From assembly GCF_000238775.2 (NCBI RefSeq), contig NZ_AFEJ02000001.1, positions 2,666,001 to 2,730,000 on the forward strand: a stretch of 64,000 bases of DNA, in the 5' to 3' direction. This DNA is from Acaryochloris sp. CCMEE 5410. Its GTDB lineage: Bacteria > Cyanobacteriota > Cyanobacteriia > Thermosynechococcales > Thermosynechococcaceae. Made by a program: the position numbers and the translations under genes. Under the pieces are notes generated by a model, which saw nothing but the letters and a program-made list of their open reading frames with translations, made no database searches and was not told the DNA's origin. Of the stretch, positions 47,873 through 54,062 are shown in pieces. The stretch's first letter is position 1; the number at the start of each line of letters is the position of its first letter.

Positions 47873-49036
47873 ATGACAGAAAAATTGATTGAACAAGAAG
47901 CACCTAAACCGCGATTCTCTCTCCAAAGTCTATTTTTTGGTGCCCGTACGTCTAAAAGTTGGATGGCATCGCTGGATGGATTAAGGGGGATTGCGGTTCT
48001 TTTAGTGGTGGCAACCCATAGTAAGCGACTCCTGGGCCTACCTTGGGAGCAAATGTTCCTGGGGCATTATTTTCAGGCCGCAGGCACTATCTATGGCAGA
48101 ACAGGGGTCTACATCTTTTTCATCTTAAGTAGCTTCCTGTTAACGAGCCACATGATGCGAGAAACAATTGAGCTTAAAAGCGCCAAAACCTGGATAAACT
48201 ATGCTTTAAAACGATTTATACGTATATATCCGCTCTATCTCTTCGTTTTAGTCGTTTATTTAATTTTTCCGGGATTTAAGTTTGAGCTGAAGGATCTAAT
48301 ATCCCATGTTCTACTGCAAGAAGCGTTTAATCATTTTTGGACTATTGTCGTAGAGTTCAAATACTATTTGTTTTTCCCCTTCGTCGTGGGGATTATTGTC
48401 CTGCTCTTCAAACGGGATTTTAAAGCGTCCACTCTCTTTTTACTCAGCGCCATTATCGTAACGGAGGGCGCTAATGTTGCGGTGGACTTCACGTCCAGAT
48501 TATCCGTCCTCCCTCATATTCCGATTTTTCTGCTGGGGTCCTTGGCAGCCGTGGTCAATGCCAAACTAACGGCGGTCTTTGACCCAGACAATCCCAAACA
48601 GCGGCGATGGATGTCCATCCTGGCCAACACCTCCTTCGTGTTGATTGTGTTTAATTTTCCCAATCTAGTGAGTCGCCCCCTGTGGGATGCCGTCTTCCAA
48701 GCCAACTATGTCCGTCTGTCCGCCAACCACGGGTTCTATACCTACCAAGCCATTCTGATCTGCGTTTTACTGGTGACCCATTTACATACAGATGGCTGGA
48801 TCAAAAAAGTGTTAGAGAATGTGGCCCTGCGATTTGTAGGAATCGTTAGTTTTGGGGTATACCTCTGGCACATTGCCGTGCTCGGCTATTTGGAATCTAA
48901 ACTAAACGCCCCTGGCTATATCCAGTTTGCCAGTGTGTTCGTGGTGACCATCCTGTTGTCTGCGATCACATATCTGTTATTTGAAAAACCCTTTATGCGC
49001 ATCAAACTTCGTCCCCAAATGATTAAGTCTTCCTAG
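47873..49036 (+). CDS. Acyltransferase family 3 protein (OafA-like), second paralogue
   Basis: A 387-aa polytopic membrane protein, paralogue of the one at 45322. Motif SLDGLRGIAVLLVVATHSK near 35 holds the key His; GVYIFFILSSFLL near 80 and FWTIVVEFKYYLFFP near 160 match the first paralogue closely. It ends the polysaccharide locus and overlaps the convergent NACHT gene by 14 bp at its 3' end. Confidence 0.85.
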   Translation: MTEKLIEQEAPKPRFSLQSLFFGARTSKSWMASLDGLRGIAVLLVVATHSKRLLGLPWEQMFLGHYFQAAGTIYGRTGVYIFFILSSFLLTSHMMRETIELKSAKTWINYALKRFIRIYPLYLFVLVVYLIFPGFKFELKDLISHVLLQEAFNHFWTIVVEFKYYLFFPFVVGIIVLLFKRDFKASTLFLLSAIIVTEGANVAVDFTSRLSVLPHIPIFLLGSLAAVVNAKLTAVFDPDNPKQRRWMSILANTSFVLIVFNFPNLVSRPLWDAVFQANYVRLSANHGFYTYQAILICVLLVTHLHTDGWIKKVLENVALRFVGIVSFGVYLWHIAVLGYLESKLNAPGYIQFASVFVVTILLSAITYLLFEKPFMRIKLRPQMIKSS

Positions 49037-51842
49037 GATCTTTAGGGTTCACCTTGATAGATGCACCCGCTTGCCAGAGGGTACGAAATTGCTCAACAGA
49101 TAATGCCAGGGACCAGTCCCACAGGAGTTTGTAAACCGGCTGGGTCTGGGCCGACTGCTGAGACGTCATATATACCCCTTGAACCATAGCGAAAGTCTGT
49201 CGCCAGGTTGAGGACTCAGCATCCACCGTCATCAGACGGAGGTGTTTGCTGATCTGTTTGAGATGGTTTTTGCTCTGGGTCCTAGAGAAAATATCCAATA
49301 ACACATCAATGGCCCCCCTGTGGTGGGGCTGTATTGCCAAAAGCTGCCCTGCATAGCGGATACGAGTCTCCATCTTTCGGCTTTTCTGCAATTTCTGTTC
49401 CAACACTGGAATAAGCTGTTGCGGCTTGAGGGGAGTTTTACGGGACCGACGACGGGAGCGCTTTACCGGTAGCGCCGAATGCTGAGGTGCCAATTTTTGC
49501 AAAGACTGTAGCGTTTGGTGACGGAGGGCAGAATCGTCGGTGGTTTGGAGGATATGTTCTAAAGTTTGGAGGGCCAGCGGTTGATCCGGGGCAATAATGC
49601 CCAGTCGATGGGCGGCCTTACGACGCAGGGACAGAGAGTCATGGGACTGAATAATATCTTGTAAGGTCTGGAGGGCCTGAGGATGTCCCGGCTGGATATC
49701 CGCAAGGGTCTTAGCCATCTCAATTTGCACATCGACGTTAGGCGCTTGGACTAGCAGGCGTTCTAGGGTTGCGATCGCAACCCCATTCCCTGGATCATAA
49801 TTTTTACCCAAGCTATGGGCTGCCAGCCACTGTTCAAAAGGATTCTGGGCGTTTACCACAAACTGTTCAATGGCTTTGGTTACAAGGGTGCGATCGCTCT
49901 GGGACAATGCTTCCCCTGCAGGCTCGATCCAGACGGTGGGTTTGCCGTTCTGCTGCTGAAATCGCCAGTTAACCACCTCGGTTACTAACGCTTCTGCGCC
50001 AGCGAATTGGGGATATTCCGCTAACCCCTTGGTCGCCAGTAATTTTGCCTGGGTATCGTAAAACCTACCACAACCATCGGTAAAGTCCACCAAGGCTTGC
50101 AGAAAATCCGCTTTATCCCCATCAGAAACGTCACTGCGCCCCAGCCATAGCAAGATCACTTCCTGCCATTGCCCCCTAAAGATGGGATAAAAGGTCGTGT
50201 CCGCTTGCTGATATTCAATCAACTGATGCCAATCTGTGATCCCTTGGGCTGCAAAATATTCCTGAAACGTAGCGTGGTAGAAGGCGTAGACCTTACCGCC
50301 CGAAGTGGGAGACCATCCCGCGGGCTGCAGCCACCCTAGCTGCAAGGCCAGAGTTAACTGATCAGGATCCAAATGTTGACTGATAAATATCTCAGGTAGG
50401 CGAAACAACGGCGACGGTTGAGTCATCGCCTGCAACGCCAAGTGAGCTAAGGATTGGTTGAGCTGCTGCCGCTGGGCCAAGCTGGTGGGGTGATGATCCT
50501 GTTTCCAGTCGTAAAGGGCCTCGACAAACTGCCGATACAGCATGGCCTTCGTTTCTGGCAGTTTCCCTTGGGTAAGTTGCCAGGTGCGACAGAGCAAGGC
50601 CAGGTGCAAGGGATTCTGAATCAGGGCTTTGAGTCGTCGCAGCTCGGGTCGATTAATTTGGTGATACAGCGTATCGCCCGTCTGGTTTTGGAACCAGTTT
50701 TGAATCACCGTTTGGACTTGATTGCCCCCTTGGCGATAGCTGAAGCTGAGGCTGCGATAGGGGGTGAAGGTTTCCAGGGCATTGTGGCCTGCGTCCCAAA
50801 GTTGCGATCGCGAGGTCAGGATTATATGGGCGTCTCCTAGCCAGCCCTTCAGCTGCTTGGCGACAAAGGCCAAGGCTTGGCTGGGCACCATCCCCATTTC
50901 ATCTACAGCATCTAGTAAAAGCCAGACCTTGCCAGTTGAGAACTGCTGGGCAAAGGCTTGTTGTTGGCTTGGTAGAACGGTAAATACCTTTAGGGTTTGC
51001 TTGAGCCAGGTTTCTAGCAGGTAAGCTGCCAGGGATTGGCCCTCTAGATCAGCGAGGGAGATCCAAATCGGCAGCACCTGATCTTGGGCCAACAGTTTGA
51101 GAGCTAAGGTTTGCAGCAGCGTCGTCTTACCTGCCCCCGGTGGACCGACAATGGCCACCCGCTGAGTCTCTGGTTGGGTGAGCAACACCTCTAGAAACTG
51201 ATCGGGCTGATAGACCGTTATCTCAGTGTCAGAATCACCGACTGCATCCTCCGTTTGTTGAGCAACGTCCGTTGGGTAAGCCACCAGCCCCACAGGGCAA
51301 TAGACATCCTTCAGGTCAAACGCCAACCCCGTATGGGCTGTCAGCGGATTAGTGGTTAAGCGAGTATCCAACGCTGCCTGACAACAGGTTCTCCAAGGGC
51401 TAGGCATCTCAGTCTTAGGTTGAGACACCCCTCGATCCGGGCGATACTGATTCCAAACGTGGTCAAAGCTTTGCTGATTGGCCGCTTCTTCCCAGCGGTT
51501 ATGCCACAGGGTCAAGGTGAAATGCCACTGATCCGACCCCCGCTGGCTGGTGCGGTGATCTTCCAGCATGCCCATAAAGGTTTGCAGATGTTTTAGCCCT
51601 GCTTTTACCTGCGCGAGGGTCAGCGGCGTCTCTAAATATTGAGTTAGGGCCACCAGATGCCGAGCCGTGGTCTGCACCACCAACCGCTGATCCGTTTGCC
51701 AATGAGTTTTGATCGTCCCCCGCAATCCTGCCAGGATTTTCTCGTCCTCAAGCTCTAGGGAATCATTGGCAAACTGCACCAACCCCATCAGGAGGGTTTG
51801 GGTTCTGCGTTGGGTAATGGGACCAAAACTTTGCTTGGGCAT
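49023..51842 (-). CDS. NACHT/STAND NTPase with C-terminal HEAT-like repeats
   Basis: A 939-aa STAND protein. An N-terminal helical domain (about 1-150) of unknown type is followed by a linker with TTNPLTAHTGLAFDLKDVYCPVGLV, common before NACHT in cyanobacteria. The NACHT has Walker A GPPGAGKTT at 233-241 and Walker B VWLLLDAVDEMG at 306-317. HEAT-like repeats of about 35 residues fill roughly 640-900. STAND proteins sense a signal and oligomerise; many bacterial NACHTs act in phage defence. No recognisable effector domain (nuclease, TIR, protease) is seen, so its output is unknown. It is divergent from the tRNA-like RNA/Ro60 unit. Confidence 0.85.
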   Translation of the reverse strand: MPKQSFGPITQRRTQTLLMGLVQFANDSLELEDEKILAGLRGTIKTHWQTDQRLVVQTTARHLVALTQYLETPLTLAQVKAGLKHLQTFMGMLEDHRTSQRGSDQWHFTLTLWHNRWEEAANQQSFDHVWNQYRPDRGVSQPKTEMPSPWRTCCQAALDTRLTTNPLTAHTGLAFDLKDVYCPVGLVAYPTDVAQQTEDAVGDSDTEITVYQPDQFLEVLLTQPETQRVAIVGPPGAGKTTLLQTLALKLLAQDQVLPIWISLADLEGQSLAAYLLETWLKQTLKVFTVLPSQQQAFAQQFSTGKVWLLLDAVDEMGMVPSQALAFVAKQLKGWLGDAHIILTSRSQLWDAGHNALETFTPYRSLSFSYRQGGNQVQTVIQNWFQNQTGDTLYHQINRPELRRLKALIQNPLHLALLCRTWQLTQGKLPETKAMLYRQFVEALYDWKQDHHPTSLAQRQQLNQSLAHLALQAMTQPSPLFRLPEIFISQHLDPDQLTLALQLGWLQPAGWSPTSGGKVYAFYHATFQEYFAAQGITDWHQLIEYQQADTTFYPIFRGQWQEVILLWLGRSDVSDGDKADFLQALVDFTDGCGRFYDTQAKLLATKGLAEYPQFAGAEALVTEVVNWRFQQQNGKPTVWIEPAGEALSQSDRTLVTKAIEQFVVNAQNPFEQWLAAHSLGKNYDPGNGVAIATLERLLVQAPNVDVQIEMAKTLADIQPGHPQALQTLQDIIQSHDSLSLRRKAAHRLGIIAPDQPLALQTLEHILQTTDDSALRHQTLQSLQKLAPQHSALPVKRSRRRSRKTPLKPQQLIPVLEQKLQKSRKMETRIRYAGQLLAIQPHHRGAIDVLLDIFSRTQSKNHLKQISKHLRLMTVDAESSTWRQTFAMVQGVYMTSQQSAQTQPVYKLLWDWSLALSVEQFRTLWQAGASIKVNPKDPRKT

Positions 51843-52016: not shown

Positions 52017-52142
52017 GGACAGCTAGTTTAACGGTAGAACATCTGCTGTATGTCCCTTCTTCAAAGCATTATCCGCAAGGGTCGAAGAATTAGGGTTATC
52101 GCTAGGACGCAGGCAATAGAGGTTCGAATCCTCTCCTGTCCA
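52017..52142 (+). ncRNA. tRNA-like Y RNA, element 1
   Basis: 126-nt RNA with tRNA architecture. Acceptor GGACAG(C)/(C)CTGTCC, 6 pairs (position 7-66 is C-C). D-arm GTTT-AACGGTA-GAAC (GG in the loop). Anticodon-like stem TCTGC/GCAGG (52042-52046 with 52109-52113). T-arm AGAGG-TTCGAAT-CCTCT, discriminator A, no encoded CCA. In place of a 7-nt anticodon loop there are 62 nt (52047-52108). These hold ATCC-GCAA-GGGT (GNRA hairpin) directly followed by GTCGAAGA, which matches the bacterial Y-RNA Ro-binding consensus GNCGAAN0-1G. It stands first in the array in front of rsr. Confidence 0.75.
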
Positions 52143-52154
52143 CACCACAACCAC

Positions 52155-52276
52155 GGGCGGATAGTTCAAAGGTAGAACGCCTTAACCCCCTTGTTCACAA
52201 CTTATCCGCAAGGGTCGAAGAATTAGGGTTATCGCCTGCAACGCGGGAAATAGGGGTTCGAATCCCCTTCCGTCCA
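52155..52276 (+). ncRNA. tRNA-like Y RNA, element 2
   Basis: 122-nt RNA, 12 nt after element 1. Acceptor GGGCGGA/TCCGTCC (7 pairs with one G-T), D-arm GTTC-AAAGGTA-GAAC, T-arm AGGGG-TTCGAAT-CCCCT, discriminator A. The anticodon region is replaced. A helix TAACCC (52183-52188) / GGGTTA (52226-52231) carries a 3' bulge with the GTCGAAG motif, and an inner CCTTG/CAAGG can form as an alternative to the GCAA hairpin. A stretch of 34 nt (52202-52235) is identical to element 1 (52069-52102). Only three pairs of an anticodon-like stem (CCT/GGG) remain. Confidence 0.75.
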
Positions 52277-52282
52277 TCCCCT

Positions 52283-52407
52283 GGAGTGGGTCGCTCAAAC
52301 GGTAGAGCACCATTTATTGCCCGCAAGGGCCGCAGGAAATAAGGTTATCGCTTTTAACGACTTGTCCTTTATCCGTCGGGATGCGGGTTCGACTCCCGCT
52401 CCACTCC
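52283..52407 (+). ncRNA. tRNA-like Y RNA, element 3
   Basis: 125-nt RNA, 6 nt after element 2. Acceptor GAGTGGG/TCCACTC (7 pairs) plus one extra pair G52283-C52407, D-arm GCTC-AAACGGTA-GAGC, T-arm GCGGG-TTCGACT-CCCGC. The inserted module has a longer helix TTATT/AATAA with GCCC-GCAA-GGGC on top, a 7-nt bulge CGCAGGA in place of the GTCGAAGA strand, and GGTTATCGC as in elements 1 and 2. Further in, CGAC...GTCG (52358-52378) forms a separate hairpin in the anticodon-arm position. The Ro-consensus differs at one base (GCCGCAG). Confidence 0.7.
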
Positions 52408-52463
52408 CTTTCCCTAGATGGGAATTACAGCTTTTTTATTGCCCAGTCGGGCCGGAGATGATC

Positions 52464-54062
52464 ATGACTTACAAATTTTTTACCAACACTGCCCGTACCC
52501 CTCAGACCCAACCGATTCCTGGCCGTGCCGCTGAAATGGTGCAAGGCCGTTCTGGAGGCTATATGTTTGACCCTGGTATTTGGGGGATGCTGCGCCGCTG
52601 CCTACTAATCGGTACCGCCCAAAGCACCTACTATGCCGATAAACATGAACTAACCGATGACTTTATCCATGTCGTCCAGCAGTGTGTCTACGAGAATCCC
52701 CAGCGCACCGCTGAAGAGATTCTCTATGCCAGCGATGGCCGTTCCATCAACAATAGTGCCCCTATCTTGGCCTTAGTGCTTTTATCCATGGGGGACACCC
52801 AAACCGCCAAGCAGGCATTTGTGGAGCTGTTCCCGCAAGTGGTGCGAACAGGTAGCCATTTCTACGAGTGGTTGAACTATACCAAGTCCTTACGGGGCTT
52901 CGGTAAAATCATTCGCCAGTGCGGAACGGCATGGCTCTCTAACCCCGATGCTAAGGCTCTGGCCTATCAGTTGCTGAAGTACCAGCAGCGTCATGGCTTT
53001 ACCCACCGGGATGCCTTACGGCTATTCCACGTCAAGCCTATCAGTGCCGATCACCAGGCCCTTTATCACTGGGTGATCCAGGGTTGGGAGACCTTACCTG
53101 AAACCACTCCTGACGCTTTAAAGCAAATTTGGTGGTACGAGCGGGTCAAGCGTCAGCCAGAGGCTACCCATGAGGCGATTACCAAAGGTCGCTTAACCCA
53201 CGAGATGATCGCCCCCATTGGTCAGATGGATCAGCGGGCTTGGCAGCTCCTCTTAGATGGAATGCCTGTGGGAGCCCTATTGCGAAATCTAGGGTCTTTG
53301 ACGGCACTAGGTGTTCTCCAGGCCCATAAGAGCAAAAACCTCAAGCGAGTGGCGGCAATGTTAACCAACAAGGAGCGCTTGCGCAAGGCTCGGATTCATC
53401 CGATTGATGTGCTCAAAGCCCTCAAGACCTATGGGTCTGGGGGCCAGGTGGGGCGGAGTCGCAAGACCTGGACCCCCATCGCCCGTGTCACCGATATTCT
53501 CGAAACAGCCCTTGAGCTATCGTTCGAGACGGTTGCCCCAACGGGCAAGGTGTTTATGCATGCCATCGATGTCTCCGGGTCGATGTCTTATTACATCGTC
53601 GGTTCTGTAGGTCTAAGCTGTTGCGAGATTGCCACGGCGATGGCCCTAGCAACGGCCAAAGCTGAGCAGAATTATGCAATTCGTGGGTTCTCAACCCAGT
53701 TCCGTGATTTGGGTATCACGGCCCGAGACAGCTTCCGCGATGCGCTTAAGAAGGCAACGGATAACAACTTCGGAGGCACCAATGCAGCGGTGGCCTACGA
53801 GTGGGCGATTCAGCATCGCTTCTATGCCGATGTCTTCTGCTTCTGGACGGATTCTGAGTCCTACGCTGGACGACAGCATCCGAGTCAGGCACTAGCGGAG
53901 TATCGACGTCTAGTAAATCCAAAGGCTAAGGCGGTCTACGTGACTCTAGCCCCTTACCAGCTCTCCTTAGTGGATCCTAAAGATCCATTATCTTGGGACT
54001 TCGGTGGTTTCGACCCTGCTGCCCCACGAGCCATCCAAATGATTGCTCAAGGAGAGATTTAA
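52464..54062 (+). CDS. rsr: Ro60 / TROVE domain protein (Rsr)
   Basis: Bacterial orthologue of the Ro60 autoantigen, an RNA-binding ring protein that pairs with Y RNAs and exoribonucleases in RNA quality control. The 532-aa protein has the TROVE HEAT-like ring (about 1-340; YMFDPGIWGMLRRCLLIGT, EILYASDGRSINNSAPILALVLLS) and a vWA domain (about 360-532) with an intact MIDAS DVSGSMS and later GGTNAAVA and WTDSES. The open frame extends upstream into element 3, but ATG 52464 follows SD GGAG at 52454-52457, so the start is there. A small GCCC-AGTC-GGGC hairpin lies just before the SD. Confidence 0.95.
   Translation: MTYKFFTNTARTPQTQPIPGRAAEMVQGRSGGYMFDPGIWGMLRRCLLIGTAQSTYYADKHELTDDFIHVVQQCVYENPQRTAEEILYASDGRSINNSAPILALVLLSMGDTQTAKQAFVELFPQVVRTGSHFYEWLNYTKSLRGFGKIIRQCGTAWLSNPDAKALAYQLLKYQQRHGFTHRDALRLFHVKPISADHQALYHWVIQGWETLPETTPDALKQIWWYERVKRQPEATHEAITKGRLTHEMIAPIGQMDQRAWQLLLDGMPVGALLRNLGSLTALGVLQAHKSKNLKRVAAMLTNKERLRKARIHPIDVLKALKTYGSGGQVGRSRKTWTPIARVTDILETALELSFETVAPTGKVFMHAIDVSGSMSYYIVGSVGLSCCEIATAMALATAKAEQNYAIRGFSTQFRDLGITARDSFRDALKKATDNNFGGTNAAVAYEWAIQHRFYADVFCFWTDSESYAGRQHPSQALAEYRRLVNPKAKAVYVTLAPYQLSLVDPKDPLSWDFGGFDPAAPRAIQMIAQGEI

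What the first reader, a model, noticed from the sequence alone, without database searches (positions are those of the whole stretch)
52017..54062. Array of three tandem tRNA-like Y RNAs in one unit with a Ro60 gene
Three RNAs of 122-126 nt, spaced by 12 and 6 nt, lie directly in front of rsr on the same strand. Each keeps a tRNA acceptor stem, D-arm with GG loop and T-arm with TTCRA loop, yet the anticodon loop is replaced by a long module. Two of three carry GTCGAAG, the bacterial Y-RNA consensus GNCGAAN0-1G. Bacterial Y RNAs near Ro60 with a tRNA-like part are established. What looks new is the topology and number: here the RNA ends lie at a tRNA acceptor stem and the Ro-binding module occupies the anticodon arm, in triplicate. 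As far as I recall, in described YrlA RNAs the RNA ends pair in the Ro-binding stem and the tRNA-like part is distal. The array may be cut like a tRNA operon by RNase P and RNase Z.
Basis: partly seen in the sequence, partly recalled or inferred. Interest (0 to 1): 0.92.

Follow-up and report, generated by a model that had tools for sequence, protein, structure and literature searches.

The report
Inside-out tRNA-shaped Y RNAs beside Ro60
In many cyanobacteria (and on one viral contig) the gene for the RNA-binding ring protein Ro60 is preceded by small RNAs that look like transfer RNAs with a Ro60-type hairpin grafted into the anticodon arm, apparently the known bacterial Y RNA with its ends moved to the opposite side of the molecule; what they do is untested.

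Summary
The array is real: three tRNA-like RNAs (52017-52142, 52155-52276, 52283-52407) precede rsr/Ro60 (about 52464-54062) on one strand in an Acaryochloris-like genome. Among 386 genomes of the phylum such RNAs were found in all 32 with a close rsr, in one with a distant rsr, and in none of 345 without. 79 of 80 named loci have them; one viral contig has three. Covariation supports an 8-bp acceptor stem, D, T and Ro stems. Rfam's YrlA has the same parts in circularly permuted order; a model from computationally permuted cyanobacterial units finds YrlA genes, two above Rfam's cut-off (46.0 and 36.5 bits) and nine sub-threshold relatives (57-77 bits). A pairing test puts the RNA ends at the acceptor stem (40 of 45 adjacent pairs for, 0 against). 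Correction: the anticodon loop is usually kept. In 112 of 150 units a 5-bp, 7-nt anticodon arm with U33 survives and the Ro hairpin is inserted into its 5' strand. Likely role: tRNA-shaped tether or gate on Rsr; anticodon-nuclease decoy is possible. An rsr-leader hairpin suggests autoregulation. No expression or binding data; the main Y RNA papers are not held, so priority is unsettled.

The parts
52017..52142 (+). tRNA-like Y RNA 1 (type A). Acceptor 52017-52023 with 52135-52141, discriminator A52142; D-arm 52026-52040; anticodon stem TCTGC 52042-52046 with GCAGG 52109-52113; Ro motif GTCGAAG 52081-52087; T-arm 52118-52134.
   Evidence: Rfam tRNA 42.9 bits with a long insert; R1 88.0 bits (in the training set); arms read on the sequence
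52155..52276 (+). tRNA-like Y RNA 2 (type A). Acceptor 52155-52161 with 52269-52275; D-arm 52164-52178; positions 27-28 at 52180-52181; Ro-hairpin insert about 52182-52232; rest of anticodon arm 52233-52247 (loop CTGCAAC, U33); T-arm 52252-52268.
   Evidence: R1 109.7 bits (in the training set); arms read on the sequence; anticodon-arm pattern
52283..52407 (+). tRNA-like Y RNA 3 (type B). G-1:C73 at 52283/52407; Ro hairpin about 52320-52336 (GGCCGCAG); anticodon-like hairpin TCG-CTTTTAA-CGA 52348-52360; helix-2 strand CCTTTAT after it; T-arm ends at 52399.
   Evidence: Rfam tRNA 34.5 bits; R1 54.9 bits, not in the training set; aligned with 13 type-B units
52182..52232 (+). Ro-binding-type hairpin grafted into the anticodon stem of RNA 2 (motif GTCGAAG 52214-52220, then GGGTTAT)
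   Evidence: helices 3 and 4 of A2 covary; insert 48-55 nt in 109 of 112 units
52233..52247 (+). retained anticodon stem-loop of RNA 2 (CGC-CTGCAAC-GCGGG)
   Evidence: read on the sequence; same pattern in 112 of 150 units
52441..52457 (+). rsr leader hairpin GCCC-AGTC-GGGC followed by CGGAG (Shine-Dalgarno-like), resembling the tip of the Ro hairpin
   Evidence: such a hairpin in 71 of 80 named loci against 91 of 1600 stretches inside rsr (pattern chosen after seeing the leaders)
52464..54062 (+). rsr, Ro60 orthologue (an in-frame ATG also at 52458)
   Evidence: PF25045 and PF05731; 35.3% identity to a Gordonia phage Ro-like protein

Best explanation
The array encodes Ro60-partner RNAs that are a circularly permuted form of the bacterial Y RNA YrlA. 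Each is a tRNA-like cloverleaf (8-bp acceptor, D, T and usually an anticodon arm) with the Ro-binding hairpin inserted into the 5' strand of the anticodon stem or, in some, into its loop. Shown by sequence and covariation: the structure, the link to rsr, the relation to YrlA by permutation, and that the RNA ends lie at the acceptor stem. Inferred: the array and rsr are one transcript cut by tRNA-processing enzymes; Rsr grips the grafted hairpin; the tRNA-shaped body hangs off the ring and either brings a tRNA-binding or RNase partner to Rsr (as Y RNA brings PNPase in Deinococcus) or gates its cavity; Rsr may bind the look-alike leader hairpin and lower its own translation.
For: R1-type RNAs track rsr: all 32 genomes with a close rsr, 1 of 9 with a distant or fragmentary one, 0 of the 345 without an rsr match (the survey scored only the best candidates, about 9 per genome, with strict filters). 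Covariation in 150 matches: 98.6% of cells paired, 343 double-change cells against 65.5 shuffled. Permuted model R2 finds two YrlA genes that pass Rfam's cut-off (Xanthomonas sacchari 72.1 by Rfam, 46.0 by R2; Rhizobium etli 92.2 and 36.5), where native R1 gives at most 34.3 and 21.3 in a shifted register, and nine sub-threshold relatives at 57-77 bits, each above Rfam's own score where Rfam lists one. Register test from D- and T-arm positions alone: own acceptor better in 40 of 45 adjacent pairs, equal in 5, neighbour's better in 0; -1:73 pair 43 of 45 against 16 of 45. Two loci have a single upstream unit (L056, L060). Anticodon arm: 112 of 150 perfect with a 7-nt loop, 3-14 of 150 with other loop sizes, 55.7 of 150 with shuffled left strands. 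Tether function of Y RNA in Deinococcus: PMC7790460 and PMC4726728 (passages).
Against: No RNA, binding or processing data for any cyanobacterium. Energy folding of neighbouring units does not decide the register: own acceptor over 0.5 in 33 of 92 cases, neighbour's in 9 of 46, and near zero for the own acceptors of units 1 and 2 of the window. Cross-unit YrlA-register matches are also strong in tandem arrays (94.2 bits at window 52078-52210). R2 scores well below Rfam in proteobacterial YrlA, and part of its score is the shared T and D arms. Many rows are close relatives: the 112 perfect arms are 46 distinct loop-stem combinations. Natural-looking anticodon loops are not needed for a mere tether.
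Confidence: 0.7

Rival explanations
1. Decoy or bait panel: the natural-looking anticodon loops make the RNAs targets or competitive inhibitors of anticodon nucleases, and Ro60 holds, senses or salvages them. Compatible with the best explanation but a different purpose.
For: Loops obey tRNA rules: U33 112 of 112, G37 after G36 38 of 39, A37 otherwise 69 of 73, with 22 different anticodons. One acceptor goes with up to six anticodons, so selection by synthetase identity is unlikely. A viral contig carries rsr and three units next to an RNA ligase gene. RtcB is present in 32 of 32 genomes with a close rsr against 96 of the other 354. PMC7790460 (passages) raises competitive inhibition of an anticodon nuclease for Salmonella YrlA.
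Against: The same paper reports no YrlA fragments, so YrlA was not cut there. No nuclease known here; RtcB is about 1 Mb from rsr in this genome, no relative of the viral ligase beside rsr in the loci compared, and RtcB co-occurrence was not corrected for lineage or genome size. Loops could be refreshed by gene conversion with real tRNAs. Type B, 6-nt-loop and D-armless units fit less well.
Confidence: 0.18
2. Intron-like insert: the Ro hairpin is cut out of the anticodon stem and RtcB rejoins the halves into a working tRNA.
For: After removal of the insert ARAGORN of 112 tRNAs, against 1 of 112 before; the 112 were chosen for a perfect arm. RtcB present in 32 of 32. 70 of 150 units encode CCA after the acceptor.
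Against: 8-bp acceptor; the same acceptor with Gly, Lys, Asn and Leu anticodons, so products would misread; insertion point varies; no intron family among Rfam matches in the window; no bacterial splicing endonuclease of this kind known to me (recalled).
Confidence: 0.06
3. Ordinary YrlA in an array: the functional units span neighbours (Ro 5' strand and T arm of one, D arm and Ro 3' strand of the next).
For: Rfam YrlA hits 52092-52211 across RNA1/RNA2 (22.1 bits); R2 94.2 bits at 52078-52210; folding is undecided.
Against: Register test 40 to 0 with 5 ties; single-unit loci; gaps between units vary from 8 to 358 nt while R1-register lengths are tight (median 125, quartiles 123-127).
Confidence: 0.05
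4. Decayed tRNA pseudogenes.
For: ARAGORN silent; at least one unit is truncated (L175).
Against: Compensatory changes in 23 of 28 pairs; co-occurrence with rsr.
Confidence: 0.01

Closest known systems
YrlA (Y RNA-like A), Rfam RF02553
   Same: Ro stem, T arm, acceptor and D arm, Ro60 neighbour; matched by the permuted cyanobacterial model; 13 of 23 YrlA-register matches examined also have a 5-bp anticodon arm with U33 (the 24 best of 52 less one partial match)
   Different: In YrlA the ends pair in the Ro stem and the acceptor is closed by a loop (PMC8394870 passages). Here the ends are at the acceptor and the Ro stem is closed by a short loop. 0 of 386 phylum genomes reach Rfam's YrlA cut-off.
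Animal Y RNAs / Deinococcus Y RNA
   Same: Ro helix with a G-rich 5' strand; Y1-like GGUCCGAAG..GAGUUAUC resembles GGCCGAAG..GAGGGUUAUC (Y1 recalled, from no call)
   Different: No tRNA body in animal Y RNAs (recalled); strand order swapped
tRNA
   Same: Cloverleaf, T loop TTCRA, D loop GG, often a complete anticodon loop
   Different: 8-bp acceptor, about 50-nt insert in the anticodon arm, acceptor not matched to the anticodon
Naturally circularly permuted RNAs (hammerhead, twister, 5S rRNA, group II introns; PMC10085705 passages)
   Same: Same parts in rotated order
   Different: Y RNA is not named in that paper (0 occurrences of 'Y RNA' and 'YrlA'); a 2024 paper does note that YrlA and tRNA superpose by circular permutation (PMC11472068 passages)

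Membership tests
YrlA (RF02553) | reaches Rfam gathering score (69 bits) | tested here: not met
   22.1 bits, and only across two units; 0 of 386 genomes over the cut-off
YrlA (RF02553) | RNA ends pair in the Ro-binding stem, acceptor closed by a loop | tested here: not met
   40 of 45 adjacent pairs favour own acceptor, 5 equal, 0 against; folding alone inconclusive
YrlA (RF02553) | tRNA-like domain with D, T and acceptor arms | tested here: met
YrlA (RF02553) | homologous sequence once order is rotated | tested here: met
   R2 finds two above-cut-off YrlA genes at 46.0 and 36.5 bits and nine sub-threshold relatives at 57-77 bits. R2 is below Rfam at the YrlA places of the six proteobacterial plasmid loci that both list, in Rhizobium L203 (36.5 v 56.1), G032 L069 (35.2 v 47.6) and slightly Bosea L192 (36.0 v 36.7)
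Ro60-bound Y RNA | encoded beside a Ro60 gene | tested here: met
   32 of 32 loci; 79 of 80 named loci; L175 has only a remnant upstream (19.7 bits). The two sets overlap in part
   RNA1 and RNA2 yes, RNA3 variant GGCCGCAG; alignment A1, where some units have GNCGC
Ro60-bound Y RNA | bound by Ro60/Rsr | not testable with these tools
   needs co-purification
functional tRNA | acceptor identity fits the anticodon | tested here: not met
   one acceptor with up to six anticodons among 112 units; judged from variety, not from synthetase rules
tRNA with known self-splicing intron | matches an intron family | tested here: not met
   no intron family among Rfam matches
Ro60 (Rsr) | TROVE plus Ro60 vWA domain | tested here: met

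The most novel reading that the evidence does not exclude
The arrays are panels of Ro60-held tRNA baits: units show different authentic anticodon loops on a shared body, so that anticodon nucleases of phages, hosts or competitors attack or are absorbed by the bait, and Ro60 (with RtcB or a phage RNA ligase) senses or repairs the cut. YrlA would then be the same device with the ring of parts opened at the other end.
Probability: 0.15. Interest if true: 0.92.

Novelty: new variant of a known kind. Interest (0 to 1): 0.7.

Why it matters
It would put one Ro60 RNA family into two circular permutations, with tandem arrays as an obvious route between them, and show that the tRNA mimicry often reaches the anticodon loop. 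Because the acceptor end is free here and closed in YrlA, charging, CCA addition and tRNA-type processing of a Y RNA become testable. Picosynechococcus sp. PCC 7002 carries three units and rsr on plasmid pAQ7, so it offers a cultured strain for the tests.

Tried and rejected
Energy folding of neighbouring units did not settle the register. Rfam alone misses the family: a YrlA search over 386 genomes gave matches in 226, none over the cut-off, and also rang in 11 of 14 control genomes. Model R1 also scores plain tRNAs at up to 53 bits, so only longer matches above 54 bits were counted. A match in G109 (50.0 bits, 166 nt) was not counted; it is a tRNA-like gene with a long insert in a genome without an rsr match. 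The first register test was biased by how units were chosen and was redone with motif positions only: 120 units by motif, 45 adjacent pairs used, 2 with identical acceptors and those too far apart left out. The anticodon test used the 150 best of 312 matches, which leaves out most type-B and D-armless units. Distant or fragmentary rsr loci: of nine, G044 has both forms, G032 and G038 have sub-threshold YrlA beside rsr (47.6 and 42.7 bits), G127 has an R2 match of 59.5 bits, and for G021, G041, G018, G360 and G030 the fetched rsr stretch gave no R1 match above 54 bits and no R2 match above 27 bits. Literature: the listings showed nothing on cyanobacterial Y RNAs; Chen 2014, Sim and Wolin 2018, Sim 2020 and Wang 2018 are not held, so I cannot say that it is unpublished.
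Full report
Observation. The window holds three tandem tRNA-like RNAs on the + strand, 52017-52142, 52155-52276 and 52283-52407, followed by rsr (about 52464-54062). The protein has the Ro60 vWA and TROVE domains. ARAGORN sees none of the three; Rfam's tRNA model sees RNA1 (42.9 bits) and RNA3 (34.5 bits) with long inserts. The genome is 8.09 Mb in 23 contigs, and its closest named relative in the scan is an Acaryochloris MAG (98% identity over rsr residues 1-485).

How general it is. rsr was found in 41 of 386 genomes of the phylum; 32 of these, the own genome included, carry a copy of at least 66% identity over nearly the full length. I fetched the surroundings of the other 40 and took the window for the own genome. 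All 32 loci with a close rsr have one to five tRNA-like units upstream on the same strand, 81 units in all by a pattern script. The nine loci with a distant or fragmentary rsr (L062-L070) were left out of that count. A covariance model, R1, was built from 46 of the type-A units. Across the 386 genomes, R1 matches longer than a tRNA and above 54 bits fall in 33 genomes: the 32 with a close rsr and G044 with a distant one (only the best candidates, about nine per genome, were scored). In the own genome the three window units rank first and ordinary tRNAs follow at 44.9 bits or less. Of 80 named loci, 79 have an upstream match of 86 bits or more; L175 has only a remnant (19.7 bits). The named and unnamed sets overlap in part (for example L115 and G193 have contigs of the same length), so they are not independent, and R1 was trained on some of the same sequences.

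Structure. In 150 aligned matches (the best of 312), 98.6% of cells pair, 23 of 28 pairs have double changes, and there are 343 double-change cells against 65.5 in shuffles. That alignment was fitted to the model, so it leans towards it; RNAalifold on the unfitted MAFFT alignment of 46 units gave the helices from which the model was made, with double changes in 20 of 28 pairs. The acceptor stem has 8 bp because -1 and 73 pair (131 of 142 distinct rows, 21 by a double change).

Relation to YrlA. Rfam's YrlA model runs Ro stem 5' strand, T arm, closed acceptor, D arm, Ro stem 3' strand (alignment). The cyanobacterial RNA has the same parts rotated. I rotated 23 units in a script, built model R2, and searched 23 loci that carry other Ro60 genes or served as controls. 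R2 gave 76.7 bits in Vibrio phage BONAISHI (Rfam YrlA 59.3), 75.2 in Nonomuraea (51.0), 70.6 in Gordonia phage Mareelih (52.1), 66.6 in Mycobacterium phage LinStu (36.1), 64.5 in Rhodococcus phage Trina (no Rfam YrlA match listed) and others. All these Rfam scores are below its cut-off of 69. On checking I therefore added six proteobacterial plasmid loci. Two of their RNAs pass the cut-off, Rhizobium etli L211 4134-4246 (92.2) and Xanthomonas sacchari L210 4378-4506 (72.1); R2 finds both over its full length at 36.5 and 46.0 bits, while R1 reaches 21.3 and 34.3 only in a shifted register. So the relation holds for accepted YrlA, more weakly than for the phage forms. G044 has both forms near its rsr: R1 type at 68.3 bits and YrlA type at 60.6 bits by R2 (38.4 by Rfam). 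A published comparison states that YrlA (PDB 6CU1) superposes on tRNA by a circular permutation (PMC11472068, passages).

Which ends are real. In tandem arrays both readings can be drawn, and R2 does match across neighbouring cyanobacterial units. To decide without bias I placed acceptor strands only by their distance from the D and T motifs: in 45 adjacent pairs the own partner pairs better in 40, equally in 5, worse in 0; the -1:73 pair forms in 43 within a unit and in 16 across. Gaps between units range from 8 to 358 nt while R1-register lengths are 123-127 nt in the middle half. Two loci show a single upstream unit. Energy folding is inconclusive.

The anticodon arm is kept. In 112 of 150 units positions 27-31 and 39-43 pair fully around a 7-nt loop when the Ro hairpin is treated as an insert after position 28 or 29; loops of 5, 6, 8 or 9 nt give 5, 14, 4 and 3 of 150, and shuffled left strands give 55.7 on average, at most 62. 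U33 is present in 112 of 112. G37 follows G36 in 38 of 39 and A37 follows other bases in 69 of 73; the 112 are 46 distinct loop-stem combinations. After removal of the insert ARAGORN calls all 112 tRNAs, with 22 different anticodons; intact, it of 112. Of 23 YrlA-register matches examined (of 52 listed), 13 have the same arm. One acceptor sequence goes with several unrelated anticodons, which argues against working tRNAs.

Other members of the locus. Type-B units carry a helix-2 strand after the anticodon hairpin instead of before the Ro tip. The script classed 13 units so, first in the array in 11 of 13; RNA3, last in its array, missed the script's limit by one base and I placed it here by eye. 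RNAalifold draws this helix, but without double changes, so support is modest. At least 43 of 80 named loci have a further R1 match downstream of rsr on the same strand (hand count of the 300 listed rows); 16 downstream sequences aligned lack a D arm. Just before rsr a hairpin like GCCC-GCAA-GGGC-CGGGAG covers the Shine-Dalgarno in 71 of 80 named loci against 91 of 1600 stretches inside rsr; the pattern was chosen after seeing the leaders. Its likeness to the Ro tip (GCC-loop-GGCCGAAG) suggests that Rsr may control its own translation. This is inference.

A viral copy. One IMG/VR contig stretch encodes an Rsr (60% identity) with three R1 units in front (83.1, 75.5, 71.8 bits) next to an RNA ligase gene (PF09414; phrog_968), an antirepressor-like gene and a weak match to a replication initiation protein. 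RtcB is found in 32 of 32 genomes with a close rsr and in 96 of the other 354, about 1 Mb from rsr in this genome; lineage and genome size were not controlled for. In three of the six proteobacterial plasmid loci, and in L203, an rtcB gene is annotated just after rsr and the YrlA matches.

Interpretation. The best-supported reading is a Ro60 partner RNA whose tRNA-shaped body is an effector or gate module, as described for YrlA and the Deinococcus Y RNA (PMC7790460, PMC4726728 and PMC8394870, passages). The natural anticodon loops on a shared body are the least expected feature. They may be bait for anticodon nucleases, may be copied from real tRNAs by gene conversion, or may be needed for modification enzymes; nothing here separates these. 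Against bait, Salmonella YrlA was reported not to be cut (PMC7790460 passages).

Novelty. I file it as a new variant of a known kind. It fails two defining tests of YrlA (score, position of ends) and passes the others that I could test. Whether cyanobacterial forms were already drawn in Chen et al. 2014, which I recall as listing over 250 species, could not be checked.

Noticed in passing
window 52441-52457: Hairpin over the Shine-Dalgarno of rsr that resembles the tip of the Ro-binding hairpin; found before rsr in 71 of 80 named loci.
   Followed up: partly
L123 5180-5288, L137 5180-5288 and other named loci: A further RNA downstream of rsr with acceptor, Ro hairpin and T arm but no D arm; no R1 match of this kind in the window.
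   Followed up: partly
L205 748-4093: Viral contig with RNA ligase, three tRNA-like Y RNAs and rsr in a row.
   Followed up: partly
L194 2298-2420 and 4406-4532 (minus): G044, in a large tRNA cluster, has the acceptor-ended form and the YrlA form near one rsr.
   Followed up: partly
L196 889-1054: tRNA-like gene with a long insert and a CTCATAA anticodon-like loop in G109, a genome without an rsr match.
   Followed up: no
window 49023-51842 (minus): EAD4-NACHT-HEAT protein, a STAND-type NTPase of the conflict-system kind, divergent from the array.
   Followed up: no
L055, L060 upstream of the first unit: TTGACA-like box with repeated ACTACA-like or GTAGTACAAC motifs before the array, possibly its promoter and operator (read on the sequences).
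   Followed up: no
L189 2044-2447: Picosynechococcus sp. PCC 7002 plasmid pAQ7 carries three units before its rsr; the PLSDB table, which holds no RNA genes, shows nothing there.
   Followed up: partly
L210 4117-4771, L206 4028-4775: Xanthomonas sacchari and Novosphingobium plasmids have several YrlA matches in a row after rsr, so YrlA also comes in tandem arrays.
   Followed up: no
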